DNA of 64,000 nucleotides from Actinoplanes subtropicus (lineage in GTDB: Bacteria; Actinomycetota; Actinomycetes; Mycobacteriales; Micromonosporaceae): contig NZ_JOJL01000007.1 in NCBI RefSeq assembly GCF_000721705.1, positions 124,001 to 188,000 of the forward strand, written 5' to 3'. Under the pieces are notes generated by a model. The model searched no databases. It was not told where the DNA came from and worked only from the letters and a program-made list of their open reading frames with translations. The position numbers and the translations under genes are program-made. This document shows, one piece after another, positions 8,339-37,397 of the stretch; within the stretch, counting starts at the first letter, position 1; each line of letters starts with the position of its first letter.

Positions 8339-8577
8339 CGGGTCCTCCCCCTGGGTCCGAAAAACCTCGACCTCCACCATGCCCCAACATCGCAACCCTG
8401 CCCATCCGCCGTAACCCTGAGCGCACCCGTAGGGGTCGGTCTCGCCCGTTTCCGCACGTCACAGGCGCCAAAAGACGTATACCGGCGATATCAGGCGTCA
8501 CCCGACACCGCAACCTGGAGTTCCGGAGCGCCGTTGAGGGTCACAGACCTCGACGGACCCGGCGGAAGGACGACGGC

Positions 8578-16185: not shown

Positions 16186-16240
16186 GAAAAAGCAACGACC
16201 GCACCGAGTCGAAAGTTGCGAAACGGGCGTTGGGTGGACC

Positions 16241-18641: not shown

Positions 18642-19313
18642 TCAGCGGAGCAGGTCGGCGAGGGTTGGGGGCTGGGTGGCGTCCACGATGACGGTGCGGG
18701 CGGTGTCGTGGTCCCGGTTCAGGCGGGAGAGGCGTTGGGTGAGCACGTCGTCCCAGGGGCGGTCCGGGCGGTGGTGGTCCCAGGTGGCCCGGTCCGGCAG
18801 GTATTCGATCAGTACGCCCAGGTCGCGGAGCAGGGCGAAGGACGGGCAGTCGGTCACCACGACCGGGCGGTGGTCCGGGTTCACCAGCAGGCGCTGGCGC
18901 AGGGTGAGGACGAACTCGCGGACCGCCGCGGTGTCCAGGCCGATCGCCACGTACAGGTGGGCGGGGGGTCGCTGCGCGGCGGAGGGCACTCGGCGTACGG
19001 CCGCGGAATTGGTCTTTGGATGACCACGCAGCCGGCGCAGGACCGCGCGGCTCAGCCGGGGCACGGTGTGTACCGGGTCCTTGACCAGCGAGACCAGGCC
19101 GTAGCCGAGGCGGTAGGACTCGCTGTGCCGCAGGCGCTCCAGGCGGCGGCGCTCGCGGTCGAGTTCGCGGCGGGCGGTCTCGGCGTTCTCCTGCTCCTCG
19201 GCGAGCCGCGCCTCCAGCGAGCGCATCCGGCCGGCCATCGCGGCCAGTTCCCAGCGGGCCCGCTCGGGGGCGTCCAGGGCCATCCGGCGGTCGGGCACCT
19301 TGACGTTACGCAC
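18642..19313 (-). CDS. Coiled-coil protein, copy 1 (paralog of 24733-25335)
   Basis: A 223-residue protein of unknown function. Residues about 15-65 form a strong heptad-type helix (ARWELAAMAGRMRSLEARL, then ETARRELDRERRRLERL), followed by SYRLGYGLVSLVKDPVHTVP. The C-terminal half looks alpha/beta: LYVAIGLDTAAVREFVLTLR, RPVVVTDCPSFALLRDLG, VLIEYLPDRATWDHH and ends PPTLADLLR. All these pieces recur in the same order in the 24733-25335 product. The GTG start lies one base after the stop of the twin-domain glycosyltransferase, with GGAGG upstream. The pair is therefore translated together and may work as a complex. No known family was recognised. Confidence 0.72.
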   Translation of the reverse strand: MRNVKVPDRRMALDAPERARWELAAMAGRMRSLEARLAEEQENAETARRELDRERRRLERLRHSESYRLGYGLVSLVKDPVHTVPRLSRAVLRRLRGHPKTNSAAVRRVPSAAQRPPAHLYVAIGLDTAAVREFVLTLRQRLLVNPDHRPVVVTDCPSFALLRDLGVLIEYLPDRATWDHHRPDRPWDDVLTQRLSRLNRDHDTARTVIVDATQPPTLADLLR

Positions 19314-19314
19314 G

Positions 19315-21483
19315 TCAGCCTCCGTGTCGGCGGGCCCGTAGGCCGCTCAGCCACGCGGCGGCCGCGCCGCCGCCGTTCTCGAATGCCAGTTCGCGGCAGC
19401 GGTGCGCGAGGCCGGCCCGCACCTCCGGGCGGGTGGCCTGGTCGAGTACCTCCTCGAGCTCGCCGGTGGACGGGTCCTCGACGGTGAGCGCCACCCCGGT
19501 GGCCGCCGCGAACCGGGCCCGGCCGACCTGGTCGTCCAGGCGGGTGGCGGCGTTCGGCAGGAAGACCGTGGGGATGCCGAAGCCGATCTGCTCGTGGAAC
19601 GAGTTGTAGCCGGCCGCGCTGACCGCGAGGTCGAACGCCCGCAGGTAGCGGCTCACCGGGTAGAGCTTGACCACCTTGGCGCCGGCGATCCGGGGCAGCG
19701 GGGTGGTGGCGATCGTCGACTCGGCCAGCACCAGCTGGAAGCCGCGCCCGGTCAGGTGCTGGCAGATCCGGGCGGCCGGGGACGAGATGTCGTTGATGTT
19801 GCCGGCGCCCAGTTGCAGCAGCGCCGCCGGCCGGTCGTCGAGGTCGAGTTCGGCCCGGGCCGCCTCGCGGGTCAGCAGTTCGCTCTCGTCGAGGAAGGTG
19901 ATCGGCTCGACCTGCACGGCGTTGGGCCGGTCGGCGACGGTGGGGCCCTCGTCGACCACGGCGGCGAACTCGCCCGGCTCCAGCACGTGGTCGAAGACCT
20001 TGCCCTCGGTGATCCAGTCGGCGCCGACGCCGCGCTGCCACATGGCCCGGCGGACCCACACCCAGATCAGCCCGGGGTGGTCGCGGACCGCCTCGACGAT
20101 CCCGGCGTGCGGCAGGCAGTCGACCGCGACCACGGCCGGCTCGTGCAGGTCGATCAGGTGGGCGAGGCGGTCGCGCAGCAGGGCGGTCCACCGGGGATGG
20201 GCGGCCTGCAGCACCTTGCGGGACGGGATGTACTCGGTCAGGAAGCCCTCGCCGTGGGCGACCGAGGCGGCGTACGACTGGGTGGCGATCACCGCGGTGT
20301 GGTCGTCGGGCAGCCGCCGGGCGATGGCCATCAGCCGGGAGAGGTGGCCCATCCCGGCGCCGTTGTCGCTGACCATGAGGACGCGTCGCGTGGTGGCCGG
20401 CTTGCCGGTGGCGGCGGAGGCGGTCGGCGGGGAGATGCGCGGGCGGATGCCGTACGTGGCCAGCCGGGTCAGGTGCGACTGGTGGCCGTAGCGCTGCTCG
20501 GCGAACTCGCGGGCCCGGCTGGCCACCGCGCGGTAGCGGGCCGGGTCGGCGTACAGCTCGTTCACCAGGGCGGGCACGTCGGCGGGCCGGCCGTAGAGTG
20601 CGGCGTCGGCGAAGGTGGGGCGGAAGTGCTCGCCGATGATCACCGGGACGCCGCTGGCCATCGCCTCGAGGATGGTCCGGCCGAAGGCCTCGACCAGGTC
20701 CGGGTCGTGGAAGTAGACGAAGAAATCGATCGTACGCAGGAACTCCTCGGGCGATTCGGCGCCGAACGGGACCACGTCCCAGTTGTCCGGTTTGTGGCCG
20801 AGGCGGCGGACCGCGATCTCGCCGCCACCGAGCACGCGCACGCGAAACGAGGACGACGGCGGGTAGGCGCGCAGGATCTCGTCCGGGTCGAGCGGCCACT
20901 TCACCGGGTCGGCCCGCCCGTGCCGGCCGATCACCGGCAGGTCGCCGACGAAGCCGTCCCGGTCGCGCCACCAGTGCGCCACGTCGATGATCTCGTGCCA
21001 GTCGGCGTCGGCGAGCCCGGCGTCCGGCTCGACCTGGCGGACCTGGTCGCGGACCTGGGAGCTGATCGGGGCCCACTCCACCCGCGGGCCGAAGTAGCGG
21101 TGCACCCGGTCGCGTACGGCCGCGAAGTCGTAGTAGCGGAAGGGGTTGCCGGCGTCGCCGGGCGGCTGGTTGATCACCATGACGGTCCGCTCGGCGCGGA
21201 TCCGCGGTAGCGCGGCGAGGTCCTCGGTGAAGATCCGGGGCTGCCGTACGAGCAGCAGCTTGCACTCGATCTCGTCGTCGTCCCGGGCCAGCGTGGCCAC
21301 CCCGTCCCGCAGCAGGTCGCTGATCCGCGGGCTGAACGGGAGGGTCCTCGGCTGGTGCGGCGACGGCACGTGCACGAGAACGGTGGAAAGCGCCGCCTCG
21401 GCCTGCGCGTACACCTCCGCGGCGATGCTCGCCGAGGTGCCGCCGGGGTAGCGGAAGTCCGAAAGGATCGCCACGTCGTGCAC
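19315..21483 (-). CDS. Twin-domain glycosyltransferase (GT4-like plus MurG/GT28-like), copy 1
   Basis: A 722-residue cytoplasmic protein with two GT-B-type halves. The N-terminal half (about 1-345) starts VAILSDFRYPGGTSASIAAE and carries RVLGGGEIAVRRL and the GT4 nucleotide-sugar segment EAFGRTILEAMASGVPVIIG. The second half (about 370-715) begins RRVLMVSDNGAGMGHLSRLM, the Gly-rich acceptor loop of MurG-like enzymes. It continues with ALLQLGAGNINDISSP, YLRAFDLAVSAAGYNSFHEQ and IPTVFLPNA. Both halves look intact. The GTG start is at 21481-21483 and the coiled-coil gene follows after one base. The substrate is unknown; the island context suggests assembly of a surface glycan. Confidence 0.85.
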   Translation of the reverse strand: MHDVAILSDFRYPGGTSASIAAEVYAQAEAALSTVLVHVPSPHQPRTLPFSPRISDLLRDGVATLARDDDEIECKLLLVRQPRIFTEDLAALPRIRAERTVMVINQPPGDAGNPFRYYDFAAVRDRVHRYFGPRVEWAPISSQVRDQVRQVEPDAGLADADWHEIIDVAHWWRDRDGFVGDLPVIGRHGRADPVKWPLDPDEILRAYPPSSSFRVRVLGGGEIAVRRLGHKPDNWDVVPFGAESPEEFLRTIDFFVYFHDPDLVEAFGRTILEAMASGVPVIIGEHFRPTFADAALYGRPADVPALVNELYADPARYRAVASRAREFAEQRYGHQSHLTRLATYGIRPRISPPTASAATGKPATTRRVLMVSDNGAGMGHLSRLMAIARRLPDDHTAVIATQSYAASVAHGEGFLTEYIPSRKVLQAAHPRWTALLRDRLAHLIDLHEPAVVAVDCLPHAGIVEAVRDHPGLIWVWVRRAMWQRGVGADWITEGKVFDHVLEPGEFAAVVDEGPTVADRPNAVQVEPITFLDESELLTREAARAELDLDDRPAALLQLGAGNINDISSPAARICQHLTGRGFQLVLAESTIATTPLPRIAGAKVVKLYPVSRYLRAFDLAVSAAGYNSFHEQIGFGIPTVFLPNAATRLDDQVGRARFAAATGVALTVEDPSTGELEEVLDQATRPEVRAGLAHRCRELAFENGGGAAAAWLSGLRARRHGG

Positions 21484-21517
21484 GTCGGATCAACGAGAAA
21501 CCGGCCCGCACCGTGAC

Positions 21518-21576
21518 GGCAACCGTGCCGGAGGCGCCAACCGTCCGGCAACCGAGAGGCCCCGGCAAGGCAACCG
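21518..21576. promoter_or_regulatory. Four spaced GGCAACCG-type motifs in a divergent promoter region
   Basis: GGCAACCG occurs at 21518, 21547 and 21569, with GCCAACCG at 21536. The last three sites are 11 and 22 bases apart, close to whole helical turns. They lie between the divergent starts of the twin-domain glycosyltransferase (21483, minus) and the CAP gene (21671, plus). They could be binding sites of one regulator acting on both; this is inferred from spacing only. Confidence 0.35.
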
Positions 21577-21670
21577 CCGCGGGGTCATCCGGGCTCGTGT
21601 GGAGCCGAACTGAGTCGGTGAACCCGGCGGTAGGAGCCGGGCACCTACCACCGAAAGTGAGTTCGACTCG

Positions 21671-22156
21671 ATGCGTACCAAGATCACCAAGCGTCTGGCC
21701 CTGATCGCGACGATCCCCGCCACCCTGCTCGGCCTGGTCATGGTGGCCGCACCGGCGAGCGCCGCGGTGGTGAGCGAGACCAAGCTGCAGGGCGACATCG
21801 CCTACCTGACCAACAAGCAGCGGGTGGCCAACGGCTGCAAGGCGGTGCACCTCGACGCGCGGTTGACCAGCGCGGCCCGGGTGCAGAGCACGTACATGGC
21901 CCGGACCGGCGCGTTCAGCCACGTCGGCAGCGGCGGCTCGACCTTTGTGGCCCGGCAGAAGGCGGCGCACTACCCGCGGCCGGCCGGCGAGAACATCGCC
22001 TTCGGCTTCCGCACCGGCGTGGACGTGGTGAAGGCGTGGATGGCCAGCCCCGAGCACCGCGCCAACATCCTCAACTGCAAGGCGACCGCGCTGGGCGTCG
22101 GCGCGGTGTACTCGGCGAGCGGCAACACGTACTTCACCCAGGAGTTCGGTTACTGA
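21671..22156 (+). CDS. Secreted CAP-domain (SCP/PR1-like) protein
   Basis: A 161-residue exported protein. Residues 1-31 form a Sec signal peptide (KITKRLALIATIPATLLGLV, cleavage after ASA). The rest is one CAP domain: LTNKQRVANGCKAVHLDARL, RTGAFSHVGSGG, YPRPAGENIAFGF, VVKAWMASPEHRANILNCKA and a terminal NTYFTQEFGY. The family's His and Glu residues (FSHV, GENIA, PEHRANIL) are present. Bacterial CAP proteins are secreted and mostly of unknown activity. It lies alone on the plus strand inside the glycan island. Its end overlaps the end of the convergent methyltransferase gene by 7 bases. Confidence 0.9.
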   Translation: MRTKITKRLALIATIPATLLGLVMVAAPASAAVVSETKLQGDIAYLTNKQRVANGCKAVHLDARLTSAARVQSTYMARTGAFSHVGSGGSTFVARQKAAHYPRPAGENIAFGFRTGVDVVKAWMASPEHRANILNCKATALGVGAVYSASGNTYFTQEFGY

Positions 22157-23160
22157 GGAGCTAGTTGGCGCACGACGCGCCGGTAAGAGAGCACGGCGTG
22201 CCGTCCGGGGGCCTCACCTTCTTCGGTGAGGCCCTCGATGGTTTCCACCCACTTGCGGAGAGCCTGCTGCTCGTCGTGCCGGTGCGCGTCGTCGAAGACC
22301 ACGGTCGCCGCGTCGGCCAGCTTGTCCTCCAGCACCCGCATCGCCGGGTAGCGCGCGTCCGGCCCGGTCTTCTCCGGCGGCCCGTCGATCAGCAGCAGGT
22401 CCACCGCGCGCACGTCGGCCAGCGCATCGGTGTCGTACCAGGGGAAGCTGCGGCCGTCGAGCAGCACCGGGCGCAGCGGGGCGTCGCGTACCTCGGCCAC
22501 CTCGGTGAGGCCGTGCGCGGCCAGCATCGCCCGGGTCTTCTCGGCGTACCCCGGGTCGTGGTCGAGCGACACCAGCCGGCCGCCCAACTTCTCCAGGGCG
22601 TACGCGAGCCACACCGTCGACGTGCCGCTGCCCAGCTCCAGCACCAGTTTCGGCTTGCGGGTCCGCACCAGGTGCACCAGGTCGAGCAGGTCGGTGGGGT
22701 TGAGCGCGAACCCGCCCGAGGACGGCATCGGCGCCCGCGGCGGGAAGCCGTCGAACAGCTGGAAGAGCGCCTCCACCTCGGCGGTCTGCGCGCGCAGCAG
22801 CCGGTCGGTGCCGTTGGCCGCGGCCTTCTGCTGGGCGGCCAGCTTGTCGGTGAGCTCGCGGTGCCGGTCGCCGGCGGACAGCAGCATCTCCTCGACCGCG
22901 CCGAGCACCCGGCGCTGGGTGTGGTCGAGCACCTGCCGCACGTCCCGCTGGTGGGTGCGCTGCAGCGCGAACAGCTGGGTCAGCCGGTGCAGGACGAACA
23001 GCAGGCCGGCGACCGTCCCGGCGAGGAAGACCCCGAGCAGGGTGAGCGCCAGCCCGAAGTGCCCGGTGAGCGCGCTGCCGACGACCGCGAGGCCGAGGAG
23101 GGCCGCGGCGGCCAGCACGGCCGCCTGGCGGCGGTTGAGTTTCCGCAAACGGCTAATCAC
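22150..23160 (-). CDS. Membrane-anchored class I SAM methyltransferase, copy 1
   Basis: A 336-residue protein. Two N-terminal helices (about 14-33 and 37-58) anchor it. A helical linker (DVRQVLDHTQRRVLGAVEEM) is followed by a class I methyltransferase domain with SAM motif I LVLELGSGTSTVWLAYALE, motif II RLVSLDHDPGYA and LLLIDGPPEKTG, then ATVVFDDAHRHDEQ. The motifs resemble O-methyltransferases that act on glycan or small-molecule hydroxyls. It is the last gene of a minus-strand run starting at 27331, 6 nt after the polytopic-protein stop. Its paralog at 29865-30896 has lost motif I. The substrate is unknown. Confidence 0.8.
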   Translation of the reverse strand: MISRLRKLNRRQAAVLAAAALLGLAVVGSALTGHFGLALTLLGVFLAGTVAGLLFVLHRLTQLFALQRTHQRDVRQVLDHTQRRVLGAVEEMLLSAGDRHRELTDKLAAQQKAAANGTDRLLRAQTAEVEALFQLFDGFPPRAPMPSSGGFALNPTDLLDLVHLVRTRKPKLVLELGSGTSTVWLAYALEKLGGRLVSLDHDPGYAEKTRAMLAAHGLTEVAEVRDAPLRPVLLDGRSFPWYDTDALADVRAVDLLLIDGPPEKTGPDARYPAMRVLEDKLADAATVVFDDAHRHDEQQALRKWVETIEGLTEEGEAPGRHAVLSYRRVVRQLAPQ

Positions 23161-23166
23161 ACCACG

Positions 23167-24705
23167 TCAACGCCCCTGCCCGCGGCCGGTTACGGGGCAG
23201 AACGGCCGGCCGGCCCGCTGCCGCGCGGCCGCGTCGAACGCGGTGTCGAAGCGCCGGGCCACCCGGGCGCCGCCCGGATTGACCGCGAGGAACTCGGCAC
23301 GCAGCGCACATCGACGGGCCGCGCCGGCCGCGGTCGGGTCGAAGTCGGCGACCTCCTGGGCGAGCCGGTCGTCGAGCCGGGCGACCGGCGACGCCATGAC
23401 CGTGTCCCGGAAGCGCTTGTTCACCGTGGCGGTGACCGCGCACCCGGCGACCAGCACCGCGATCAGGCCGCCGAGCACCAGTCGGCGGGGCCGGGCCAGG
23501 TGGGCCGTGGCGACCAGCAGCAGGGCGCCGCCGGGTGCGACCACGGCGGTGTCCCGCCAGCCCTGCCCCCAGCGGTGCGCGGCCACCAACTGCTGCACGT
23601 CGGCACTCAGCGAGGCCAGAGCGGCGCCCAGCGCGATCAGCGTGAGGGCCACCACGGCCAGGGCGCGAGCGGCCGGCCGGCCGACCGGGCCGAGCCGGCG
23701 CAGGTCGCGCTGGGCGGTCCGGGCGAGCACGGCCAGGGCGGCCAGGGCGAGGACGAGGGTGAGGGCGGAGAGGGCGCCGCCGCCGCGGATCGCGCTCTGC
23801 CACTGCAGCGGCGGGAGCCAGGCGATCGCCCGTACGGGAAAGGCTTCCAACGACGCCGGGCGCAAGGCGACGTCGGAGGCCGAGTAGCACGGACCGGTGT
23901 CGCAATAGGACTTGATCACGAGCCGGACCGCGCCGAAGACCGGCAGGAAGCCCAGCCAGAGCGCGGCCAGAGCGCGCCGGCCGGGCACCCATCGGCCGCG
24001 GGCCACCACCGCGACCGTGGCCAGCGGCAGCGCGAGATAGGTGAGCTCGTTGACGGCGGCCAGGGCGGCGCCGCCGAGTGCCAGCAGCGGCAGGTGCCGG
24101 ACCCGGACCCGGCCGAGCCGGACGATCGCCGCCACGGCCAGCAGGACCAGCGCGGCGGTCGTGAAATACAGTCCGCCGAAGAGCACCACCGGGCTGGACC
24201 GCCCGGAGGCCACCAGCCCGGCGGCGAGCGCGAACGGGGTCAAGGCGGCCACTGTGGACGGTTCGGCGCGGAACAACCGGCCCCGGCACACCACGCTCTC
24301 GGCGAGCACCAGCGTGGCCACCCCGAGCAGCATCGCGGCGGCGATCGACACCAGCCGCAGCCCGATGTTCGCCGGCACGCCGAAGTCGCCGAGCGTGTAC
24401 GCCGCCAGGTCGACCAGCTTCTCCAGCATCCGCCCGAGCGGCCGGAAGTTGCCGTTGCGCAGATAGCCCGGCAGGGAATCGAGGGTGTCCGGCACGATCC
24501 GCGGCGGGTCGTCGTGGAACAGGCCCCCGTGCCAGTAGACGTTGTACTTGTGGTCGGCGGTCGGCGCGAGCGCCACGATCGAGGCCAGCACGACCAGCGG
24601 CGCCAGCGCGGCCCGCAGCAGCGCCCGCCGCCACAGCGCGCCGGCCGACGGCCCGGCCGCGGCAAAGCGCATCTCGGTCCGGGGCTTCGGCACGACGACG
24701 GTCAC
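23167..24705 (-). CDS. Polytopic membrane protein, paralog 3 of a three-member local family
   Basis: A 512-residue protein with ten or more hydrophobic segments and the same motif order as the products at 12156-13673 and 14671-16185: TADHKYNVYWHGG, GNFRPLGRMLEKLVDLA, VVLFGGLYFTTAALVLL, AAVNELTYLALPLATVAVV, LGFLPVFGAVR, CDTGPCYSASD, WLPPLQW, GWRDTAV, VNKRFRDTV, RRCALRAEF and GRPFCPVTG. The C-x4-C pair and the two C-terminal Cys residues are conserved. It differs from the others in its genetic setting: it sits with a coiled-coil protein and a methyltransferase rather than GtrA/GtrB. GT-C-like by layout only. Confidence 0.72.
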   Translation of the reverse strand: MTVVVPKPRTEMRFAAAGPSAGALWRRALLRAALAPLVVLASIVALAPTADHKYNVYWHGGLFHDDPPRIVPDTLDSLPGYLRNGNFRPLGRMLEKLVDLAAYTLGDFGVPANIGLRLVSIAAAMLLGVATLVLAESVVCRGRLFRAEPSTVAALTPFALAAGLVASGRSSPVVLFGGLYFTTAALVLLAVAAIVRLGRVRVRHLPLLALGGAALAAVNELTYLALPLATVAVVARGRWVPGRRALAALWLGFLPVFGAVRLVIKSYCDTGPCYSASDVALRPASLEAFPVRAIAWLPPLQWQSAIRGGGALSALTLVLALAALAVLARTAQRDLRRLGPVGRPAARALAVVALTLIALGAALASLSADVQQLVAAHRWGQGWRDTAVVAPGGALLLVATAHLARPRRLVLGGLIAVLVAGCAVTATVNKRFRDTVMASPVARLDDRLAQEVADFDPTAAGAARRCALRAEFLAVNPGGARVARRFDTAFDAAARQRAGRPFCPVTGRGQGR

Positions 24706-24732
24706 AAGGCGGCCAACGAGGGCGCCGCGCGG

Positions 24733-25335
24733 TCAGTTACTCAGCAGGCGCGCCAACGTCGGCGGGTCCCGGGGATCGATCACCACCGTGCCGGCCGCGC
24801 GATGGTCGCGGCAGAGCTGGGCGATCCGGCCGGCCAGCATCGTCTCCCAGTCGGCGCCGGGGTCGTGCCGGCGCCAGGTCGCCGGGTCGGGCAGGTATTC
24901 GAGCACCACGCCCGGCACCTGCAGGCCGCGCAGCGCCGGCTGGTCGGTGACCAGGACCGGCAGGTGGTCGCCGTCCACGACGATGCGCTGCCGCAGGGCC
25001 CGGACCAGCGCGTGCGACGCCGGGCCGCCGAGGCCGACCGCGACGTAGACCCGGGCCGGCGCCGGGCCGGCCGGCGGGCGGCGCCGGGGCGGCGTGGCCC
25101 GGCCGTGCCGGATGCGCCGGACCGCCCGGCCGGCCAGCCCGATCGGGTCGCGGGTCAGCTCGACCAGAGTCCGCCCGATCCGATACGACGGGCTGCCCCG
25201 CAGGGCCGCGGCCTGCCGCCGGTGCCGGTCGCGCTCCTCGACGGCGGCGTCCCGCTCGGCCTCCAGCGAGCGCAGCCGGCCGGTCAGCGTCGCCACCTCC
25301 CAGCGGGCCAGCGCGAGGTCATCGGGTTCCGACAC
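24733..25335 (-). CDS. Coiled-coil protein, copy 2 (paralog of 18642-19313)
   Basis: A 200-residue protein. It opens with a heptad-rich helix (ARWEVATLTGRLRSLEAERD onward), then SYRIGRTLVELTRDPIGLAG, a short basic/Pro-rich linker and the alpha/beta half VYVAVGLGGPASHALVRALR, LPVLVTDQPALRGL, VVLEYLPDPATWRRH, ending PPTLARLLSN. Every block has its counterpart in the 18642-19313 product, while intervening sequence has diverged strongly. The start overlaps the end of the twin-domain glycosyltransferase by 17 bases, so the glycosyltransferase/coiled-coil gene order is also duplicated. Function unknown. Confidence 0.72.
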   Translation of the reverse strand: MSEPDDLALARWEVATLTGRLRSLEAERDAAVEERDRHRRQAAALRGSPSYRIGRTLVELTRDPIGLAGRAVRRIRHGRATPPRRRPPAGPAPARVYVAVGLGGPASHALVRALRQRIVVDGDHLPVLVTDQPALRGLQVPGVVLEYLPDPATWRRHDPGADWETMLAGRIAQLCRDHRAAGTVVIDPRDPPTLARLLSN

Positions 25336-27331
25336 GGTTGGCCTCCCTCGCGAATCCGGCCAGCCAGCTGGCCGCGTCGCCGGCGCCGTTGCCGAAGGAG
25401 AGCTCGGCGCAGCGCCGGCTGAGCGCCTCGCGGACGGCCGGGTCGGCGAGCCGCTGCAGCTCGGCGGCGGCCGACCCGTCGTCGGTGGCGTACGCGGCGA
25501 CCCCGGCGGCGGCCGCGAACCGGGCGCGGGCCAGCTCGTCGTCGGTGGCCGCGGGATCGGGCACGAAGACGGTCGGCACCCGGGCGCCGATCAGCTCGTG
25601 GAAGCCGGTGTAGTCGGCCCGGGACACGGCCACGGTGACCCGGCCCAGCTCGGCCCCCATCGCTGAGACGGCCCGGAAACCGGGCAAGGTAGCCTCGACG
25701 CCCCGGCAGAGCAGCGTCAAGTCGCCGGCCCGCCGGACGACCCGGTCCGGCAGGTCGGTGATCGGGTCCACCGTGGACACCCCGTGCCGGGCGGTGGTGG
25801 TCCAGCCCTCGTCCCCGGCCGCGGCGAACTCGCCCGGCTCGAGGATGCCGGCGAAGGCCAGTCCGCGGGCCGCCCACTCGCCGCCGGTGCCGCGCCGCCA
25901 CATCGCCGGGCGCAGCCACAGCCAGCGGGTCGCCGGGTTCTCCTCGATCGCACCGAGGATCCCGTCGTGCGGCAGCCCGCCGACCAGCACGGCCCGCGGG
26001 CGGTACAGCTCGACCAGATGGCGCAGCCGGTCGCGGACGAAGCCGGGCCAGCGGGCGGGCGGCACGCCCAGGTCGGCGGCGCCCGGCAGGTACTCGGTGA
26101 GCAGGCCGGCGGCGTGCGCCTCGGCCAGGCTGGCGGTGCCGACCACGACCGCCTCGAGGCCCTCGGGGAGCCGCCGGGCGATCGCCCGGAAGCGAGCCAC
26201 GTCATCGCCGACCAGGAGGACGCGCCGCCTTTCTCGGGTAATTCGGGCACGTCGCTTCTTAGGGGAAAATCCCGCTCGGGACACCACGCCGAGAGACGCC
26301 AACCGAGCGATGTGCGACGCACTGCCGAACTGGTCGGCCACGAACCGCCGAGCCCGCAAGACCTGCGAGTCGTACGCCTCCCGGTCGTGGTGCAGCCGGC
26401 GGACCACCTCGCGCACGCCGGCCGGCTCGCAGTAGAGCGCCGCCTCCCCGAAGATGGCCCGGAAGTGCGGCCCGACAATCACCGGCACCCCGCTGGCCAT
26501 CGCCTCGAGGATGGTCCGGCCGAACGCCTCCTTCCAGTCCGGGTCGTGGAAGTAGACGAAGAAGTCCAGCCCGGCCAGGAAGTCGCGGGGCGCCTCGGCG
26601 CCGAACTCGACCACCTCCCACGACCGCGGCAGCCGGCCCAGCCGGTGGACGCCGATCTCGCCCCCGCCGAGAATGCGCACCTTGAAGTCCGGCGAGTCCG
26701 GGTAGGCCTGCAGCAGCTCACCCGGGTCGCGCGGCCACTTCACCGGATCGGGCCGGCCGTGCCGCCCGAGCACCGGGACGGCACCCGGCTCACGGCGGTG
26801 CTCGACCTGCCAGTCGGCGACGTCGATGATCTCGTGCCAGTCGGTGTCCGGCAGCGCGATCGAGGGCGCGACCTGCAGCACGTTGTCGCGTACCTGGGTG
26901 CTGATCGGGGCCCAGACCGCGTCGCCGCCGAAGAGCCGCTCGACCCGCTCGCGTACCTCGTCGAAGACGTAGTAGCACTGGGCGTGCCGCTCGTCGCCGG
27001 GCGGCTGGTTGAGCACGACGATGGTGTGCCCGGCCCGGATCCGGGGCACCACGGCCGGTTCCTCGGTGAAGATCCGCGGCTGGCGGATCAGCAGCACCCG
27101 GGCGGTGATCTCGGCGCCGTCGTCGTGGGCGAGGTCGGCGAGCCCGTCGCGCAGGCAGGCGACGATCCGGCTCTGGAACGGCCGGGCGTGCTTGAGGTGC
27201 GGCGACGGCAGGTGGGCGAGCACGGTGGACAGTCCGGCGGCGGCCTGCGCGCGTACCTCGGCGACGATGCTCGCGGAATTGCCGCCCGGGTACCGCAGGT
27301 CGGACAGGATGGCGACGTCGTACTGGGGCAC
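25319..27331 (-). CDS. Twin-domain glycosyltransferase, copy 2, second half degenerate
   Basis: About 670 residues from GTG 27331, chosen because VPQYDVAILSDLRYPGG then aligns with the start of the 19315-21483 product; a TTG at 27355 is an alternative. The first half is intact (VRILGGGEIGVHRLGRL and EAFGRTILEAMASGVPVIVG). In the second half the Gly-rich acceptor loop is gone: copy 1 reads SDNGAGMGHLSRLMAIARRL where this copy reads GDDVARFRAIARRL. The block around LLQLGAGNIND is also shortened. YTGFHELIGARVPTVFVPDP remains. The second half may be inactive or structural. The coiled-coil gene overlaps the 3' end. Confidence 0.8.
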   Translation of the reverse strand: MPQYDVAILSDLRYPGGNSASIVAEVRAQAAAGLSTVLAHLPSPHLKHARPFQSRIVACLRDGLADLAHDDGAEITARVLLIRQPRIFTEEPAVVPRIRAGHTIVVLNQPPGDERHAQCYYVFDEVRERVERLFGGDAVWAPISTQVRDNVLQVAPSIALPDTDWHEIIDVADWQVEHRREPGAVPVLGRHGRPDPVKWPRDPGELLQAYPDSPDFKVRILGGGEIGVHRLGRLPRSWEVVEFGAEAPRDFLAGLDFFVYFHDPDWKEAFGRTILEAMASGVPVIVGPHFRAIFGEAALYCEPAGVREVVRRLHHDREAYDSQVLRARRFVADQFGSASHIARLASLGVVSRAGFSPKKRRARITRERRRVLLVGDDVARFRAIARRLPEGLEAVVVGTASLAEAHAAGLLTEYLPGAADLGVPPARWPGFVRDRLRHLVELYRPRAVLVGGLPHDGILGAIEENPATRWLWLRPAMWRRGTGGEWAARGLAFAGILEPGEFAAAGDEGWTTTARHGVSTVDPITDLPDRVVRRAGDLTLLCRGVEATLPGFRAVSAMGAELGRVTVAVSRADYTGFHELIGARVPTVFVPDPAATDDELARARFAAAAGVAAYATDDGSAAAELQRLADPAVREALSRRCAELSFGNGAGDAASWLAGFAREANRVGTR

Positions 27332-27383
27332 GCGAGGACAAACGACAGGAACCAAGGGGGCGATACGGACAATTCACCCGAGT

Positions 27384-27420
27384 CTCTCGGTGGTTAAGAC
27401 GAGCCTCTCGGTCGTTAAGA
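27384..27420. promoter_or_regulatory. Two direct 16-bp repeats with 21-bp period in a divergent promoter region
   Basis: CTCTCGGTGGTTAAGA (27384-27399) and CTCTCGGTCGTTAAGA (27405-27420) differ at one base. Their starts are 21 bp apart, two turns of B-DNA, so both face the same side. They lie between the starts of the twin-domain glycosyltransferase (27331, minus) and the GT2 gene (27444, plus), ending 11 bases before the AGGAGG of the latter. An operator for a dimeric or tandem-binding regulator is a reasonable guess. Confidence 0.45.
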
Positions 27421-27443
27421 ACACCGAGACCAGGAGGACGCGC

Positions 27444-29729
27444 ATGTACGAACCGCACCCGCTCGCCGTGGCCGCGCTGCAGGCCCGCTCGGTCGCCGCC
27501 CGGGCGCCGCTGGCCCGCGCGGCCGCCGAGGAGCCCTGGCCGGTCGGCGAGCTGGCCCGCGTGATCGCGTGTCAGGACCTGCGCCCGGACGATCCGGCGG
27601 AGGCGCTGGCGATCCTGGCGAAGCTGCGGCGGGCCGGCACGATCGCGCCGGAACATCAAGGACTGCACACCCAGATTGCGTACGCCGTGGGCGATCGCAC
27701 GCTCGCGGCCGCCCTCCTGGCGGAGTACCCCGGGATCGCCGAGCCGATCCGTACCGCCGTCACGCTCGACCTGGCCAATCCGCACGCCGGTGGGACCGGC
27801 CGCAACTGGGACTTCACCGGCCTGCTGCCGCACCCGTCCTGCCGGGTGGCCGAGGGCGGCGGCCCGGCCCTCGACCGGCTGGTCACCGGCGCGGCCCAGC
27901 GGATCGGCCACCCCCGCCGGATCACCACCATCGTCACCACCTGGCGGCCCGGCCGGGAGCTGCTCACCGCGGTCCGCTCGCTGGTCGCGCAGACCTGGAC
28001 CAACCACGAGATCCTGCTGGTCGACGACGGCTCGCCGGCCGAGTACGACCCGATCCTGCGCGCCGCCACCGGGCTGGACCCGCGGGTCCGGCTGATCCGG
28101 ATGGTCGCCAACGGCGGCACCTACGTGGCCCGCAACGCCGGCCTGGACGCCGCGACCGGGGACTTCGTCACGTTCCAGGACTCCGACGACTGGTCGCACC
28201 CGCTGCGGCTGGAGCGGCAGATCGCCCCGCTGCTCGCCGACGACGCGGTCTTCTCGACCACCTCGGTGGGCATGCGGGTCACCCCGGACCTGGTGCTCAC
28301 CCGGGTCGGCGTCGAGCAGACCCGGTCGTACAACCTCTCCTCGCTGATGATCCGGCGGACGGCGGCGCTCAACCGGGTCGGCTACCTCGACCCGGTCCGC
28401 AAGGGCGCCGACGCCGAGTACGTCGAGCGGGCCCGCGCCGTCCTCGGCCGCGCCGCCACCCAGCACCTCGGCGGCGCCCCGCTGGCCCTGATCCGGCTCT
28501 CCGCCGATTCGCTGTCCAGCGCCGACTACCGCCCAGGCTGGATGCACCCGGCCCGCCGCTCGTACCTGTCCGCGTTCCAGGCCTGGCACGTACGGGTCAA
28601 GGACGGGACGGCCGACCCACGACAGCCCCGCGCCTTCGCCGCGCCCCGCCGGATCCGGGGCGAGAGCGGGCCGCGGGCCTACGACGTGGTGCTGGCCGGG
28701 GACTGGACCGCGGCCGGGGGCGCCGGGACGGCCGGCATCGGGCAGCTGCGGGCGCTGCGGGACCGGAACCTGCGCGCCGCCTTGCTCCAGCTGGACGTGC
28801 TCTCGCACCTGCGGCACGGCGTGCGCAACCTCGACCCGGCGGTGCAGGAGCTGATCAACCTCGGCGAGCTGGCCCAGGTCGAGCTCACCGACGACGTCCG
28901 GGCCCGGCTGGTGGTGTGCCGCACCCCCAAGGTGCTGCAGCACGCGCCCGACCTGCCGAGCGGGATCCGGGCCCAGCGGGTGGTGATCGAGTCGGCGACC
29001 ATCGCCCGCTCGGCGGCCGCGTCCAGCCGCCGCCTGTTCGGCCGCCGGCCGCTCTGGGCCCCGGCCGGGCCGGACGGCCGCCGGCTGCTCACCGAGGCGC
29101 TCGCCGAGGACCCGCTCACCGACGGCGCCCCGGCCGACCTGCTCACCCCGCTCGACCTGCCCGGCACGGTCGACCCCGCGCAGTGGCGCCTGGACCGGCG
29201 CGGGCCGCGGGCCGACCGGCCGGTGCTCGGGCGGCGCTGCCGGGGCGGCCGGGCCGAGTGGCACCGCCTTCGGGCGGAACTGCCGGACGGCCCGGGGGTG
29301 GACGTACGCCTGCTGGATGCCGACGGCACCGCCGAGCGTTCGTTCGGACGGCCCGGCGCCCCCGGTTCCTGGCTGGTCTACGGCCCGGCCGAGGTGAGCC
29401 TGCGCTCGTTCCTCTACCAGATCGACTTCTACCTGCCGCTGCCCCGCCCGGACGCGCCCGCCGACCCGGAACCGGACGTGCTGGCCGCGCTCGCCGCCGG
29501 TTGCGTGGTGCTGCTGCCGGCCCGGTACGCCGCCGCGTTCGGCGACGCCGCGGTCTACTGCGAGGCGGCCGAGGTGGCGGAGACCGTACGCCGGCTGCAC
29601 GAGGACAAGCCGGCACTGCGCGCCCAGGCCGCCCGCGGCCCGGAGTTCGTCCGCCGGCACCACGGCCACGAGGTGTACGCCGAGCGCGCCGCCCGGTTGG
29701 CAACCCAAGGGCACCCGGCCCGTTCGTAA
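27444..29729 (+). CDS. GT2-type glycosyltransferase with long flanking domains, copy 1
   Basis: A 761-residue cytoplasmic protein. The ATG at 27444 has AGGAGG at ideal spacing. A helical N-terminal part (about 1-150) precedes the GT-A domain: ITTIVTTWRPGRELLTAVRS, ILLVDDGSPAEYDPIL, ANGGTYVARNAGLDAATGDF and the catalytic-acid region TFQDSDDWSHPLRLERQ. The C-terminal 300 residues contain a GT-B-like end (VLLPARYAAAFGDAAVYC). All parts recur in the 30914-33346 product. It stands alone on the plus strand with an intrinsic terminator shortly after its stop. The acceptor is unknown. Confidence 0.85.
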   Translation: MYEPHPLAVAALQARSVAARAPLARAAAEEPWPVGELARVIACQDLRPDDPAEALAILAKLRRAGTIAPEHQGLHTQIAYAVGDRTLAAALLAEYPGIAEPIRTAVTLDLANPHAGGTGRNWDFTGLLPHPSCRVAEGGGPALDRLVTGAAQRIGHPRRITTIVTTWRPGRELLTAVRSLVAQTWTNHEILLVDDGSPAEYDPILRAATGLDPRVRLIRMVANGGTYVARNAGLDAATGDFVTFQDSDDWSHPLRLERQIAPLLADDAVFSTTSVGMRVTPDLVLTRVGVEQTRSYNLSSLMIRRTAALNRVGYLDPVRKGADAEYVERARAVLGRAATQHLGGAPLALIRLSADSLSSADYRPGWMHPARRSYLSAFQAWHVRVKDGTADPRQPRAFAAPRRIRGESGPRAYDVVLAGDWTAAGGAGTAGIGQLRALRDRNLRAALLQLDVLSHLRHGVRNLDPAVQELINLGELAQVELTDDVRARLVVCRTPKVLQHAPDLPSGIRAQRVVIESATIARSAAASSRRLFGRRPLWAPAGPDGRRLLTEALAEDPLTDGAPADLLTPLDLPGTVDPAQWRLDRRGPRADRPVLGRRCRGGRAEWHRLRAELPDGPGVDVRLLDADGTAERSFGRPGAPGSWLVYGPAEVSLRSFLYQIDFYLPLPRPDAPADPEPDVLAALAAGCVVLLPARYAAAFGDAAVYCEAAEVAETVRRLHEDKPALRAQAARGPEFVRRHHGHEVYAERAARLATQGHPARS

Positions 29730-29830
29730 ACCCGCCCGGGCCGGCGACCGATCTGTGCCGGCGTAGGACAACAGAGCAGCCGGCCCCCGCCGGCTCGGCC
29801 GCCGGGACACTCCCCTGGTACCCGCGGCCC

Positions 29831-29863
29831 AGCGGTCCCGCCGTCCCCCGCGGCGGGACCGCT
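29831..29863. terminator. Bidirectional intrinsic terminator
   Basis: A perfect 13-bp stem, AGCGGTCCCGCCG (29831-29843) with CGGCGGGACCGCT (29851-29863), and a 7-base loop. It is followed by a short T-containing tract (CTTATTT) on the plus strand. It lies between the convergent stops of the GT2 gene (29729) and the methyltransferase-like gene (29865), suited to ending both. Confidence 0.75.
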
Positions 29864-29864
29864 C

Positions 29865-30896
29865 TTATTTGGCGGCCTTGGCCGGTGCTTCGGGATGAGC
29901 GAGCACCGTCCAGCGGCCGCTGACCCGGCGCTGCTCGGTCAGGCCGAACCCGCCCTGCCGCGGCGCGACGTGCGTCGGCGCCTCCACCACCACCGCGCCG
30001 CCGTCGGCCAGCCGCCGGCCGAGCACGTGCAGGGCCGGCGCCACGCCGTCGGCGCCGGCCACCACCAGCAGGTCGATGCCGGTCAGGCCGTCCAGCGCGT
30101 CGACGTCGTACCAGTCGACGGGCCGGCCGTCCACGGTGAGCTCGGCAAGCGGAGCGTGCCGCACCTCGACGCCGGTCAGGCCGTGCTCGCGCAGCGCGTC
30201 CCGGGTCGCCTCGGCCCGGGCCGGGTCGTGCTCGACCGCGACCAGCCGGCCGCCCTCGGCGAGCGCGTAGCCGAGCCAGACCGCGGCCGGCCCGCCCCCG
30301 CCGAGCAGCACGGTCAGCCCGGGCTGCCGGCCGGCCGCCAGGTTGTGCAGGCCGAGCAGGTCGGTCGGGTTGAGCGCGCCGCCGGGCGGCATCGGCGCCC
30401 GCGGCGTCACCCGCTGGAAGAGTTGGAACAGCGCCTCGACCTCGCGGGTCTGCTCGCGCAGCAGCAGTTCGGCGCCGCGCCCGGTGAGCCGCTCGGCCCG
30501 GGACAGCGCCTCGGTCAGCTCCTGGTGCCGGTCGCCGGCCGCGAGCCGCTCCTTCTCCACCGCGGCGATCACCCGGCGCTGCACCTGCTCGACGAGCGCG
30601 CGCAGGTCACGGACGGCCTCGCGGTTGGCCCGGCCGACCCCGCCGAGCCGGCGGGACAGGTGGATCACCCCGGCCGGCACGGCGACCAGCAGCAGCGCGA
30701 GCAGGCTGGTGGCCAGCGCGGACTGCCCCGCGGCCGAGGCCACCGCGACCCCGAGGCCGACGATCGCCGTCGCCAGCAGGCCGGCGACCTGCCGGCGGGA
30801 CAACCCGAGGAGGGCCTTGACCAGCCGCTTGACCTTCGCCGTCACCTTCACCCGTCCAACCACCCCGCCCGCCACCCAAAAACCGCCTAAAGGCAC
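29865..30896 (-). CDS. Membrane-anchored methyltransferase-fold protein, copy 2, SAM motifs lost
   Basis: A 343-residue paralog of the 22150-23160 product. Two N-terminal helices, the linker (ALVEQVQRRVIAAVEKERLA) and the landmarks EVEALFQLFQRVTPRAPMP and ALNPTDLLGL are shared. The SAM-binding motif has changed: LVLELGSGTSTVWLAYALE of copy 1 reads TVLLGGGGPAAVWLGYALAE here. LLLIDGPPEK reads LLVVAGADGV. It is probably unable to methylate, perhaps a scaffold or regulatory partner. The GTG at 30896 is used here, but a start near VKVTAKVKRLVKALL is equally possible. It follows the GT2 copy 2 stop after 17 nt. Confidence 0.72.
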   Translation of the reverse strand: MPLGGFWVAGGVVGRVKVTAKVKRLVKALLGLSRRQVAGLLATAIVGLGVAVASAAGQSALATSLLALLLVAVPAGVIHLSRRLGGVGRANREAVRDLRALVEQVQRRVIAAVEKERLAAGDRHQELTEALSRAERLTGRGAELLLREQTREVEALFQLFQRVTPRAPMPPGGALNPTDLLGLHNLAAGRQPGLTVLLGGGGPAAVWLGYALAEGGRLVAVEHDPARAEATRDALREHGLTGVEVRHAPLAELTVDGRPVDWYDVDALDGLTGIDLLVVAGADGVAPALHVLGRRLADGGAVVVEAPTHVAPRQGGFGLTEQRRVSGRWTVLAHPEAPAKAAK

Positions 30897-30913
30897 ATTT
30901 TTCTCAACGGAGC

Positions 30914-33346
30914 CTACGTCGCGGCCGTTACGGGAAGCATCGCCATGATCCGCTCCACCAGCAGCGCCGGATCATGCGCGCGGGCGACCACCGATCGGGC
31001 CCTCCGGCTTTGCTCGGCGAACAGCGCCGGATCGGCCCGGTAGCGCTCGATCAGCGGCGCCACCTCGGTGCGGCCGCAATAGACCGCGGCGTCGCCGTAC
31101 AGCCCGGCGTACCGCTCCGGCATCACCACCACGCAGCCCATCGCGGCCGCCTCCAGCGCCGGCCGGGAGTACCACTCGGCGCTCTCCGGCGGCGGGAAGT
31201 GCAGGTAGAAGTCGAGCTGGTGGAGGAACGGGCGGGGGTCGAGGTCGCCGGCCTCGTACGCCAGCCAGGTGGGGCGCAGCGGCACCTCGAGCGTGCCGCG
31301 CGGCCGGTCGGGCAGCCGCACCCGGAGGTCGGCGCCGGGCAGCCGGTGGCACACCGCGAGGGTCTCGGCCGGGTCGCCGGGCCAGTTGGCGGCGTCGCAG
31401 AGATCGGCGCCGGCCAGCGCGGGTCCCGGGCCGGCGGCGGTGCGCGGCGGGACCCAGCCGCCGGGCGCGAGGGCGGTGGGAAAGTCCCGGTCCTCACCGG
31501 TACGCAGGGCGGCCCGCACCCCCGGGTCCTGTGGAACCCATGCCGGCTCCGCCCCGAACAGCTCGCGCGCCACCTCGGTGCACGTCTCCGGCAGGTAGCG
31601 GTGGTCGGTGCCGTTCGACCGGCGCGGCGCCCGGTCGGCGACCACGACCACCCGCCCGGCCCGTACCCGGCTCGGCAGGCCGCCCGCGAACTGCAGCACC
31701 GCGGCCTGCCGGACCAGCACCAGCGCGGCCTCGACCCGCTCCTGGATCCCGACCCGATCGACCACGCCCGCGTTGATCAGGTCTTGCAGCGGCGCGCAGA
31801 TCGGCTGCCGCTTGAGGTAGACCGCCCGGAACGACTCCAGCTGCAGCACGGCGACCCGCAGGCCGGCCGCGACCAGCGCCCGCAACTCGTCGATGGCGGT
31901 CCGCTGCGGGCTCTCCAGGAACCGCCAGTCGGCGACCATGACCACGTCGTACCGGACGGGCGTGGACGGGTCGGCGCCGAGCAGGTGGCCGGGCGCCGGG
32001 AACGGCCGGCCGGAGCCGTCGGCCGGGCGTACCGGCGAGGCGACCCCCGCCGCGATCCGGTCGTGCCAGCGCAGGTACGCCGAGCTGTAGGCGACCCGGG
32101 CCGGGTGCATCCAGTTCGGCTTGATCTCCGAGCGGGACAGCGAGTTCGCGCTGAGCCGGATCAGCGCCAGCGGCAGCGAGTCGAGGTGCCGCACCCGGCG
32201 CGCCCCGAACGCCGCCTGGATCCGCCCGATGTACTCGCTGTCGGCCGCCTTGCGCACCCGGTCGAACCAGCCGACCTTGCCGAGCACCGCGTTGCGCCGG
32301 AAGACCAGCGAGGACGGGTTGAACCGGCCGCTGCGCACCCCCGGCCGGCTGAGCATCAGCTGGTCGGTGACGGCCAGCCCGTCCGAGGTGGTGGCGACCA
32401 GCCGCCGGTCGGAGAGCATCGGCCGCACCTGCAGCTCCAGCCGGCGCGGGTGCGACCAGTCGTCGGAGTCCTGGAACGCCGCGAACTCGCCGCCGGCCGC
32501 CTCCAGCCCGGCGTTCCGGGCCGCGTAGGTGCCGCCGTTGACCGCGAGCTTGACCAGCCGGATCCGGTCACCGAGGGCCACCGCGGCGCGCAGCACCTCG
32601 TCGTACTCCGGCGGGGACGCGTCGTCGACGATGACGATCTCGGTGTTCGCCCAGCTCTGCGCCAGGATCGAGCGGATCGCGGTGAGCAGGCCCCGATCCG
32701 GCCGGTACGCGGTGACCACCACCGAGACCCGGTGCGCCTCCTCGACCCGCTCGACGGCCGGCGCGGCCAGCCGGTCGAACGGCGCGCCGTCGCCCTCGCC
32801 GACCACCGGCCCGGGCGCCGGCAGCATCGCCTGGAAGGCCCGCAGCCACGGCTCCGCCGGCCGGTCCCCGGCGTACGGGTTGATCAAGTCGGCCCGCAGG
32901 CAGCCCAGCGCCGGCTCCTTGATCCGCCAGTAGCCCCGCAGCAGCGCCCGGGCCCGCTCCGGACCCAGGTCGGCCAGCGCGAGCTGAACGTGCAGCGCCT
33001 GGTTGGCCGGGTTCAGCCGGCGGCCGCCCAGAGCCCGGCGGATCAGCTCGTAGAGGGCGAGCGCGTCTGCCCGGTCCTCCGGCGCGAGCTCCTGCTGGGC
33101 GTACGTCTGCGCGATCGCGGCCAGCAGCGACGCGGTCACCTTCCGCCGGACCTTCCGCAGCCGGCGGCGGTCGCCGGCCCGGGCCGCGGCCAGCAGGTCG
33201 TCCAGCGTCAGGGCATCGCCGAGCGCGGCCCGGGCCAGCAGCAGGCGCCCGTCCCGCGAGCGGGTGCGGGTCACCGTGGCGGTCAGCGCGAGCCGCAGTT
33301 CCGGCCCGAGCGCGGCGATGTGATCATCAAGCAGGGCCTCGAGCAC
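30914..33346 (-). CDS. GT2-type glycosyltransferase with long flanking domains, copy 2
   Basis: An 810-residue paralog of the 27444-29729 product. The N-terminal helical part (about 1-220) is longer. The GT-A domain has VSVVVTAYRPDRGLLTAIRS, IVIVDDASPPEYDEVL, VNGGTYAARNAGLEAAGGEF and AFQDSDDWSHPRRLELQ, so the metal and sugar-binding residues are intact. IRLSANSLSRSEIKPNWMHP and the C-terminal CVVVMPERYAGLYGDAAVYC also match. It starts with GTG 46 nt after the glnD stop on the same strand, so it may receive read-through from the nitrogen operon. The next gene is methyltransferase copy 2. Confidence 0.85.
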   Translation of the reverse strand: MLEALLDDHIAALGPELRLALTATVTRTRSRDGRLLLARAALGDALTLDDLLAAARAGDRRRLRKVRRKVTASLLAAIAQTYAQQELAPEDRADALALYELIRRALGGRRLNPANQALHVQLALADLGPERARALLRGYWRIKEPALGCLRADLINPYAGDRPAEPWLRAFQAMLPAPGPVVGEGDGAPFDRLAAPAVERVEEAHRVSVVVTAYRPDRGLLTAIRSILAQSWANTEIVIVDDASPPEYDEVLRAAVALGDRIRLVKLAVNGGTYAARNAGLEAAGGEFAAFQDSDDWSHPRRLELQVRPMLSDRRLVATTSDGLAVTDQLMLSRPGVRSGRFNPSSLVFRRNAVLGKVGWFDRVRKAADSEYIGRIQAAFGARRVRHLDSLPLALIRLSANSLSRSEIKPNWMHPARVAYSSAYLRWHDRIAAGVASPVRPADGSGRPFPAPGHLLGADPSTPVRYDVVMVADWRFLESPQRTAIDELRALVAAGLRVAVLQLESFRAVYLKRQPICAPLQDLINAGVVDRVGIQERVEAALVLVRQAAVLQFAGGLPSRVRAGRVVVVADRAPRRSNGTDHRYLPETCTEVARELFGAEPAWVPQDPGVRAALRTGEDRDFPTALAPGGWVPPRTAAGPGPALAGADLCDAANWPGDPAETLAVCHRLPGADLRVRLPDRPRGTLEVPLRPTWLAYEAGDLDPRPFLHQLDFYLHFPPPESAEWYSRPALEAAAMGCVVVMPERYAGLYGDAAVYCGRTEVAPLIERYRADPALFAEQSRRARSVVARAHDPALLVERIMAMLPVTAAT

Positions 33347-35661: not shown

Positions 35662-37397
<1,736 letters not shown>

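What the first reader, a model, noticed from the sequence alone, without database searches (positions are those of the whole stretch)
18642..33346. Duplicated glycan-assembly cassette inside one island
Four families each occur twice: coiled-coil protein, twin-domain glycosyltransferase, membrane-anchored methyltransferase-fold protein and GT2 with long flanks. The glycosyltransferase/coiled-coil order is kept in both copies, and the polytopic protein is triplicated nearby. The copies are strongly diverged, so the duplication is old or the two sets were acquired separately. Such a set has no named system that I recognise. It may build two related surface polymers or one alternating polymer.
Basis: partly seen in the sequence, partly recalled or inferred. 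Interest (0 to 1): 0.75.

Follow-up and report, generated by a model that had tools for sequence, protein, structure and literature searches.

The report
Merged spore-case glycan gene sets
In a branch of the soil bacterium Actinoplanes, two long-separated versions of a gene set that in a relative helps to build spore cases lie side by side; two enzymes of one version have lost key catalytic residues but still evolve as if they were needed.

Summary
In detail: coiled-coil (C), two-module glycosyltransferase (T), membrane methyltransferase (M) and GT2 (G) proteins occur twice, a polytopic protein (P) three times. But it is neither nameless nor one local duplication. The island, between ffh and glnD, matches gene for gene the gsf cluster of A. 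missouriensis, whose deletion gives small sporangia and immature spores (PMC13390465). G1/G2 are an older pair. The T, C and M pairs are confined to one clade (21 of 67 genomes searched). Tests reject a local origin for T, C, M and P. The glnD-side genes (G1-M2-G2-T2-C2-P3) are of Jidongwangia type; M1, T1, C1, P2 and DPM are of Actinoplanes sensu stricto type. I read this as two diverged gsf loci merged at one junction. In 21 of 21 double loci M2 and T2's second module have lost key catalytic residues, yet dN/dS there is 0.22-0.36 in four pairs tested: maintained, probably non-catalytic copies. P has a GT-C-like fold and travels with DPM and GtrA: the likely third part of the gsf Gtr system, unassigned in the paper. 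'Two polymers' is not supported; substrates and roles remain unproven.

The parts
8308..10338 (+). Stealth protein (CR1-CR4), putative sugar-phosphate transferase
   Evidence: Pfam Stealth_CR1-4, all above cut-off
10369..11631 (+). UDP-sugar dehydrogenase (UGD)
   Evidence: Pfam UDPG_MGDP_dh N/central/C
11782..12159 (-). GtrA flippase, 125 aa, ATG at 12159
   Evidence: PF04138 hit G000:C7:135797-136141, 76.3 bits, above cut-off; start and translation
12156..13673 (-). P1, polytopic protein, GT-C candidate; neither A- nor B-type
   Evidence: paralogue of P3; in the P tree it branches with the P of G009
13670..14674 (-). DPM: GT2, putative polyprenyl-phosphate-sugar synthase (A-type)
   Evidence: PF00535 92 bits; tree
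14671..16347 (-). P2, polytopic protein, GT-C candidate (A-type)
16241..18283 (+). O-acyltransferase with SGNH domain (AT); type not tested
   Evidence: Pfam Acyl_transf_3 and SGNH
18642..19313 (-). C1: coiled coil plus half GT-B lobe (A-type)
   Evidence: trees
19315..21483 (-). T1: GT4-like GT-B module plus GT1/GT28-like GT-B module, both motif sets intact (A-type)
21671..22156 (+). CAP-domain protein
   Evidence: PF00188 77.4 bits
22150..23160 (-). M1: methyltransferase with N-terminal membrane/coiled-coil part, motifs intact (A-type)
   Evidence: PF13578 53.5 bits against cut-off 26.3; 13 of 13 positions
23161..23166 (.). junction between A-type genes (ffh side) and B-type genes (glnD side)
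   Evidence: gene trees change type between M1 and P3
23167..24705 (-). P3, polytopic protein with GT-C-like fold (B-type)
24733..25335 (-). C2 (B-type)
25319..27355 (-). T2: first-module residues intact, second module has lost its motif residues (B-type)
27444..29729 (+). G2: GT2 plus GT-B-like module without its EX7E pair (B-type)
29865..30896 (-). M2: methyltransferase-like, motif residues lost (B-type)
   Evidence: PF13578 22.7 bits, below cut-off 26.3
30914..33346 (-). G1: GT2 plus GT-B-like module with EX7E pair (B-type)

Best explanation
The island is the gsf locus (ffh-glnD) of an Actinoplanes of the 'Paractinoplanes' clade, made of two diverged gsf loci merged at one junction (23160/23167). 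Proposed working: cytoplasmic transferases (G1, G2, T1, with partner C) build an oligosaccharide, M1 methylates and AT acylates it; DPM makes a polyprenyl-phosphate sugar, GtrA flips it, and the GT-C proteins P1-P3 transfer it outside onto an envelope or sporangium glycan; Stealth may add a sugar phosphate. The B-type half adds P3, G1, G2 and T2, whose first module is intact. T2's second module and M2 are most likely no longer enzymes and serve as scaffold or anchor of the complex. Shown by calls: gene content, synteny, tree types, loss of motif residues, purifying selection, GT-C-like fold of a model. Inferred: transfer as the cause, every substrate, every biochemical step, loss of activity, the scaffold role.
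For: Gene-for-gene match to AMIS_70380-70480 (A. missouriensis locus in G035). Species tree of GlnD, FtsY, SMC, GlnB (21 genomes): double-locus genomes with Actinoplanes sensu stricto 100/98; with Jidongwangia (G025) rejected p 1.2e-5. B-type genes go with G025/G058 and, for M and G1, G011; G1 and G2 of doubles + sensu stricto rejected p 0.002 and 5.9e-7. Both copies as one clade rejected: M 1.5e-5, P 3.4e-5, C 0.011, T first module 0.008. All 13 chosen positions: M2 0 of 21 (each keeps 2 to 8 of them), M1 8 of 8 in group I; all 16 of T's second module: T2 0 of 21, T1 8 of 8 in group I; other genomes M 39 of 40, T 25 of 28, the B-type G025, G058, G011 not counted there. dN/dS of those regions 0.22-0.36 in 4 of 4 group I pairs, upper 95% bounds 0.36-0.58. 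P: fold; Asp51 after the first helix 37 of 37. Of 60 loci 45 have P, each with DPM or GtrA or both; the 15 without P have neither.
Confidence: 0.6

Rival explanations
1. Very old duplication: the whole gsf locus was doubled before the genus radiated; sensu stricto species lost the B-type set, Jidongwangia-type species lost the A-type set, and the Paractinoplanes clade kept most of both.
For: The same gene trees are expected; both types sit at the same chromosomal place; the mixed placement of P fits paralogue sorting.
Against: Needs G1 and G2 doubled too and then lost complementarily; no locus seen outside the one clade holds two T, C and M; one junction between the typed genes.
Confidence: 0.24
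2. Local tandem duplication of [M-CAP-G2-T-C-AT-P] with fast divergence of one copy.
For: Gene order alone fits it well.
Against: AU tests reject a shared clade of both copies for M, P, C and T; B-type genes group with G025 outside the clade.
Confidence: 0.06
3. The second set is decaying: T2 and M2 are on the way out and nothing depends on them.
For: Motif residues and segments lost in 21 of 21; in group II the frames of T1, T2 and M1 shrink in many genomes.
Against: Frames open in all 21; dN/dS of the affected regions 0.22-0.36 with intervals below 1, whole genes like their neighbours.
Confidence: 0.2
4. One reading: two complete sets build two related polymers or one alternating polymer.
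For: Two sets of transferases; P3, P2 and P1 keep the conserved Asp51, Arg92 and Glu95 columns.
Against: Set B has no intact methyltransferase or second T module motif set; the island has one DPM and one GtrA for three P (though the genome has seven other GtrA hits).
Confidence: 0.08

Closest known systems
gsf cluster of Actinoplanes missouriensis (AMIS_70380-70480), PMC13390465
   Same: The same eleven kinds of gene, in the published order in the A. missouriensis genome and, allowing for rearrangement, here; beside glnD, and beside ffh where the fetched stretch reaches it.
   Different: A. missouriensis has one T, C, M and P; here two T, C and M and three P, of more than one phylogenetic type, with T2 and M2 that have lost motif residues. 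The paper predicts no domain in the 11-helix protein AMIS_70420 (= P) and suggests AMIS_70410 as the outer transferase while noting that it is not GT-C.
Three-component transmembrane glycosylation systems (CsbB/GtcA/YfhO type; PMC5836110, PMC8035078, PMC7389260: search listing with the start of the abstract only)
   Same: A GT2 synthase, a GtrA-type flippase and a GT-C-like protein travel together.
   Different: Embedded in a larger island; three GT-C candidates for one synthase and one flippase; acceptor unknown.
MurG/GtfD-type (GT28/GT1) and BshA/HepE-type (GT4) GT-B transferases
   Different: Two GT-B units in one chain; T2 keeps only the first one's motif residues.
Alg13/Alg14 split GT-B enzyme (recalled, no call)
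   Same: A separate protein with only an N-lobe-like part (C) beside a GT-B enzyme.
   Different: T1's second module still carries both lobes, so C would be an extra lobe.

Membership tests
gsf locus | Stealth, UDP-sugar dehydrogenase, GtrA, GT2 synthase, 11-helix protein, C, T, G2, AT3, M, G1 together | tested here: met
   All found in the window and in the A. missouriensis locus in the published order. Copy number is not taken as defining
gsf locus | transcribed early in sporangium formation; deletion gives small sporangia | not testable with these tools
   Known for A. missouriensis only
Gtr three-component system | GT2 synthase and GtrA flippase in one gene group | tested here: met
   13670-14674 and 11782-12159, with P1 between them
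Gtr three-component system | third component with GT-C fold and a conserved acidic residue after the first helix | tested here: met
Gtr three-component system | transfer of a polyprenyl-phosphate sugar outside | not testable with these tools
   needs biochemistry
GT1/GT28-like GT-B transferase: T1 second module | GT-B fold and conserved motif residues | tested here: met
GT1/GT28-like GT-B transferase: T2 second module | conserved motif residues | tested here: not met
   5 or 6 of 16 positions in the 21 double loci; glycine-rich loop and GNIND segment deleted; PF04101 14.1 bits. T2 was not folded
Methyltransf_24 (PF13578): M1 | score above the curated cut-off and conserved motif residues | tested here: met
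   53.5 bits against 26.3; 13 of 13
Methyltransf_24 (PF13578): M2 | score above the curated cut-off and conserved motif residues | tested here: not met
   22.7 bits against 26.3; 2 to 8 of 13 positions, with Glu175, Pro261, Pro262, Arg294 and Trp304 lost in 21 of 21
Wzx/Wzy pathway | Wzx and Wzy in the cluster | tested here: inconclusive
   None of the Pfam-scanned island proteins matched such a family at E 0.1; the rest of the genome was not searched

The most novel reading that the evidence does not exclude
Two diverged versions of one glycan-assembly locus were fused by recombination, and the transferase module and methyltransferase of one version, enzyme-dead by their motifs, have been kept under selection as the non-catalytic scaffold of a multi-enzyme complex whose membrane-embedded (GT-C) transferases were so far unrecognised. 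In a sister group the once-intact partners have followed the same path, in two species down to the membrane/coiled-coil stub of M1.
Probability: 0.32. Interest if true: 0.62.

Novelty: new variant of a known kind. Interest (0 to 1): 0.46.

Why it matters
It ties an unnamed island to a phenotype known in a relative (sporangium size and spore maturation), offers the unassigned gsf protein AMIS_70420 as the missing GT-C transferase, which a single deletion can test, and gives a natural series (minimal, single, double, double-eroded loci in one genus) in which to ask why glycan enzymes that have lost catalytic residues are kept.

Tried and rejected
Local tandem duplication: first favoured from gene order (note), then dropped after the trees and AU tests. 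First species tree put G045 beside G025; per-gene identities showed that amtB comes in two types in the genus, so amtB was left out; one search also used only the best domain of each hit and was redone. UGD and Stealth trees did not discriminate. A flagellin-glycosylation idea (the genus has motile spores) gave 0 papers and was not pursued. Promoter scan: 0 sites against 0.3 expected; terminators 5 against 2.5. A VIA row list cannot exclude families that are absent from it. Presence/absence count: 60 of 68 regions; dropped were G064, G042, G042b, G027, G041, G031b, G059 and G016 (cut by contig or fetch ends); five counted ones (G035, G033, G038, G040, G019) do not reach ffh; G006 was not fetched. 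The AU tests used subsets of genomes (18 to 28 rows, named in the scripts); the P and T tests used group I doubles only, and P1 was left out of the P test; the M, P, C, G1 and G2 trees were the quick kind. The motif positions were picked from the invariant columns of alignments that did not hold T2 or M2, after I had seen the losses.
Full report
Observation. The window lies in an Actinoplanes genome (G000:C7:124001-188000; relatives named). Between ffh (6467-8026) and glnD (33392-35650) there are, from ffh: Stealth, UDP-sugar dehydrogenase, GtrA, P1, DPM-like GT2, P2, acyltransferase/SGNH, C1, T1, a CAP-domain protein, M1, P3, C2, T2, G2, M2, G1. Paralogue identities are 43-53%. The families also share modules: the C-terminal part of G resembles the first module of T, and the C-terminal part of C resembles the N-lobe of T's second module.

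What it is. A paper of June 2026 (PMC13390465; I read its outline and abstract, introduction, in silico section, gsf transcription, phenotype section and the first of two parts of the discussion) describes the gsf cluster AMIS_70380-70480. Its eleven genes are, in order, the kinds found here, in single copy except for two G. In the genome whose contig length equals that given for A. missouriensis 431 (G035; 8,773,466) I find them in that order between glnD and Stealth. The paper reports that transcription rises early in sporangium formation and that the deletion gives small sporangia, uneven spores and fewer released spores. A search for three of the locus tags found only this paper. In the parts I read, single-gene deletions are reported for wps-1 but not for gsf.

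The locus across the genus. Among 67 genus genomes (own included) glnD was found in 67. I fetched the region for nearly all and annotated 68 regions; 60 were counted. G1 was found in 59 and M in 60 of the 60 (the one without G1 is cut by a contig end). G2, T and C are present together in 46 and absent together in 14. P is present in 45, always with DPM or GtrA or both (GtrA not detected in 6, DPM not in 2); the 15 without P have neither. Two loci have P, DPM and GtrA without T, three have T without P. So the island looks modular: a core (G1, M), a G2-T-C module and a P-DPM-GtrA module. In G047, G052 and G041 the G2-T-C-P-DPM block is inverted. Double loci (two T, C and M) were seen in 21 of 67 genomes, minimal ones in 12; a few of the 67 could not be judged. 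In a quick tree of FFH the 19 double-locus genomes included form one side of a branch (SH-aLRT 98); in the four-protein tree the ten included do so with 83/86.

Origin of the two sets. The species tree (GlnD, FtsY, SMC, GlnB; 21 genomes) joins double-locus genomes with Actinoplanes sensu stricto (100/98) and rejects joining them with G025, the genome of Jidongwangia (p 1.2e-5). M1, T1, C1, P2 and DPM of the doubles go with sensu stricto genes, CAP weakly so. G1, G2, M2, T2, C2 and P3 instead go with G025, G058 and, for M and G1, G011. Tests: G1 and G2 of the doubles with sensu stricto rejected (0.002, 5.9e-7); both copies as one clade rejected for M (1.5e-5), P (3.4e-5), C (0.011) and T first module (0.008). 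Against a simple story: T2 with G025 is weak (89/75; 44/42); T1 and C1 sit beside G019 (Mangrovihabitans), which the species tree puts on the other side; the P of the missouriensis group falls on the P3 side and P1 is a third type. All typed B genes lie on the glnD side and all typed A genes on the ffh side, with one junction between M1 and P3. G1 and G2 are an older pair: each is one clade in the 31-genome sample. I therefore favour a merger by transfer and recombination over an old duplication with complementary losses, which remains possible. My confidence went down by 0.02 on recounting these exceptions.

State of the enzymes. I chose 13 positions of M among those invariant in 14 intact relatives and, in T, 3 of the first and 16 of the second module among those invariant. 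In single or minimal genomes, the B-type G025, G058 and G011 set apart, M keeps all 13 in 39 of 40, T the second-module set in 25 of 28 and the first-module set in 26 of 28 (one second-module miss, G027, is cut by the fetch). In double loci M2 keeps the full set in 0 of 21 (2 to 8 of 13 each) and T2's second module in 0 of 21 (5 or 6 of 16). Group I (8 genomes, the window's) keeps M1 8 of 8 and T1 8 of 8; T2's first module is kept 8 of 8. Group II (13 genomes) keeps M1 0 of 13, T1 second module 0 of 13, and T2 first module 2 of 13; in G003 and G015 M1 is a stub of 133 and 135 residues, the membrane and coiled-coil part. No AT or P2 hit was seen in group II loci (one of the 13, G042, is split over contigs). 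G025 already lacks these sets in its M and T, so the loss predates the merger. In the G family the EX7E pair of the GT-B module is kept in 50 of 64 G1 and 0 of 50 G2.

Selection. Over four group I pairs (which share genomes) the dN/dS of the affected regions was 0.23-0.36 for T2 and 0.22-0.34 for M2, with upper 95% bounds below 0.6; whole-gene values resemble those of neighbours. In one search one control row (T1 of G063-G064) covered the whole gene because the anchor motif was not found. The estimate is Nei-Gojobori and rough, but it is far from 1, and the frames are open. That argues for maintained copies. Because group II has lost motif residues in both M copies, a simple 'dead partner activates live partner' model does not cover the whole clade; a structural role does.

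T and C. The T1 model (26 sequences, pLDDT 90, pTM 0.53, so the arrangement of the two halves is unsure) gives two GT-B units: residues 1-347 like HepE/BshA, 366-717 like GtfD and MurG. The T-C pair is old: a profile of C finds a relative directly downstream of T in 9 of 18 non-Actinoplanes loci with full-length T (five Jiangella, Haloactinopolyspora, Phytoactinopolyspora, one Cellulomonas, Sneathiella; E 8.5e-13 to 2.4e-6) and one upstream in a Rhodospirillales MAG (the 18 are L033-L045, L048-L051 and L053, my count).

Co-occurrence in the class. In 197 genomes of the class (own included) M was found in 34, G1-type in 24 and T-type in 42 at E 1e-15; many T hits match one module only. Fourteen genomes other than the window's, all of family f20, hold one hit over most of T (a fifteenth, G085, as two neighbouring hits); 12 of the 14 have M, and in 10 of the 12 M and T lie on one contig within about 40 kb (my count from the tables). 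M and G hits lie under 100 bases apart in G125, G258, G230 and G156. Loci of Cellulomonas, Isoptericola and Oerskovia carry M, G and AT together.

Verdict. Real and correctly seen, but it is a new arrangement of a recently named locus. What is new as far as my searches and reading go: the two types side by side, the conserved loss of motif residues in one set, and a GT-C assignment for the unassigned membrane protein. Not shown: any substrate, product, expression in this species, or a role for T2 and M2.

Noticed in passing
window 36036-37433 and its counterparts in L167-L186: amtB upstream of glnD comes in two types in the genus (G045 is 94% identical to G025 but 67% to G000) that cut across the species tree, as if exchanged between species.
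   Followed up: partly
G047, G052, G041 regions (L127, L099, L166): The G2-T-C-(AT)-P-DPM block of gsf is inverted relative to its flanks in three genomes.
   Followed up: no
window 21671-22156: A small CAP-domain protein gene sits inside the island; one search counts 52 CAP hits over the fetched loci, from minimal to double.
   Followed up: no
window 11782-12159: GtrA overlaps the 3' end of P1 by four bases; the simple gene call missed it because a longer frame runs through it.
   Followed up: yes
L053 (Sneathiella sedimenti), L033, L045, L049, L051: Relatives of T, in Sneathiella with a C relative directly behind it, occur in Alphaproteobacteria with no other gsf family seen within the fetched flanks.
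   Followed up: partly
L067 (Stenotrophomonas mori): A gammaproteobacterial locus holds Stealth, a G relative and an acyltransferase relative together.
   Followed up: no
window 29831-29863: A strong terminator-like hairpin (14 pairs) lies between the convergent genes G2 and M2.
   Followed up: no
L052, L054-L062, L065: In other actinomycetes and in MAGs, one of them Chloroflexi, T-like modules sit beside a UDP-sugar dehydrogenase gene without M or G in the fetched flanks, perhaps another glycan locus.
   Followed up: no
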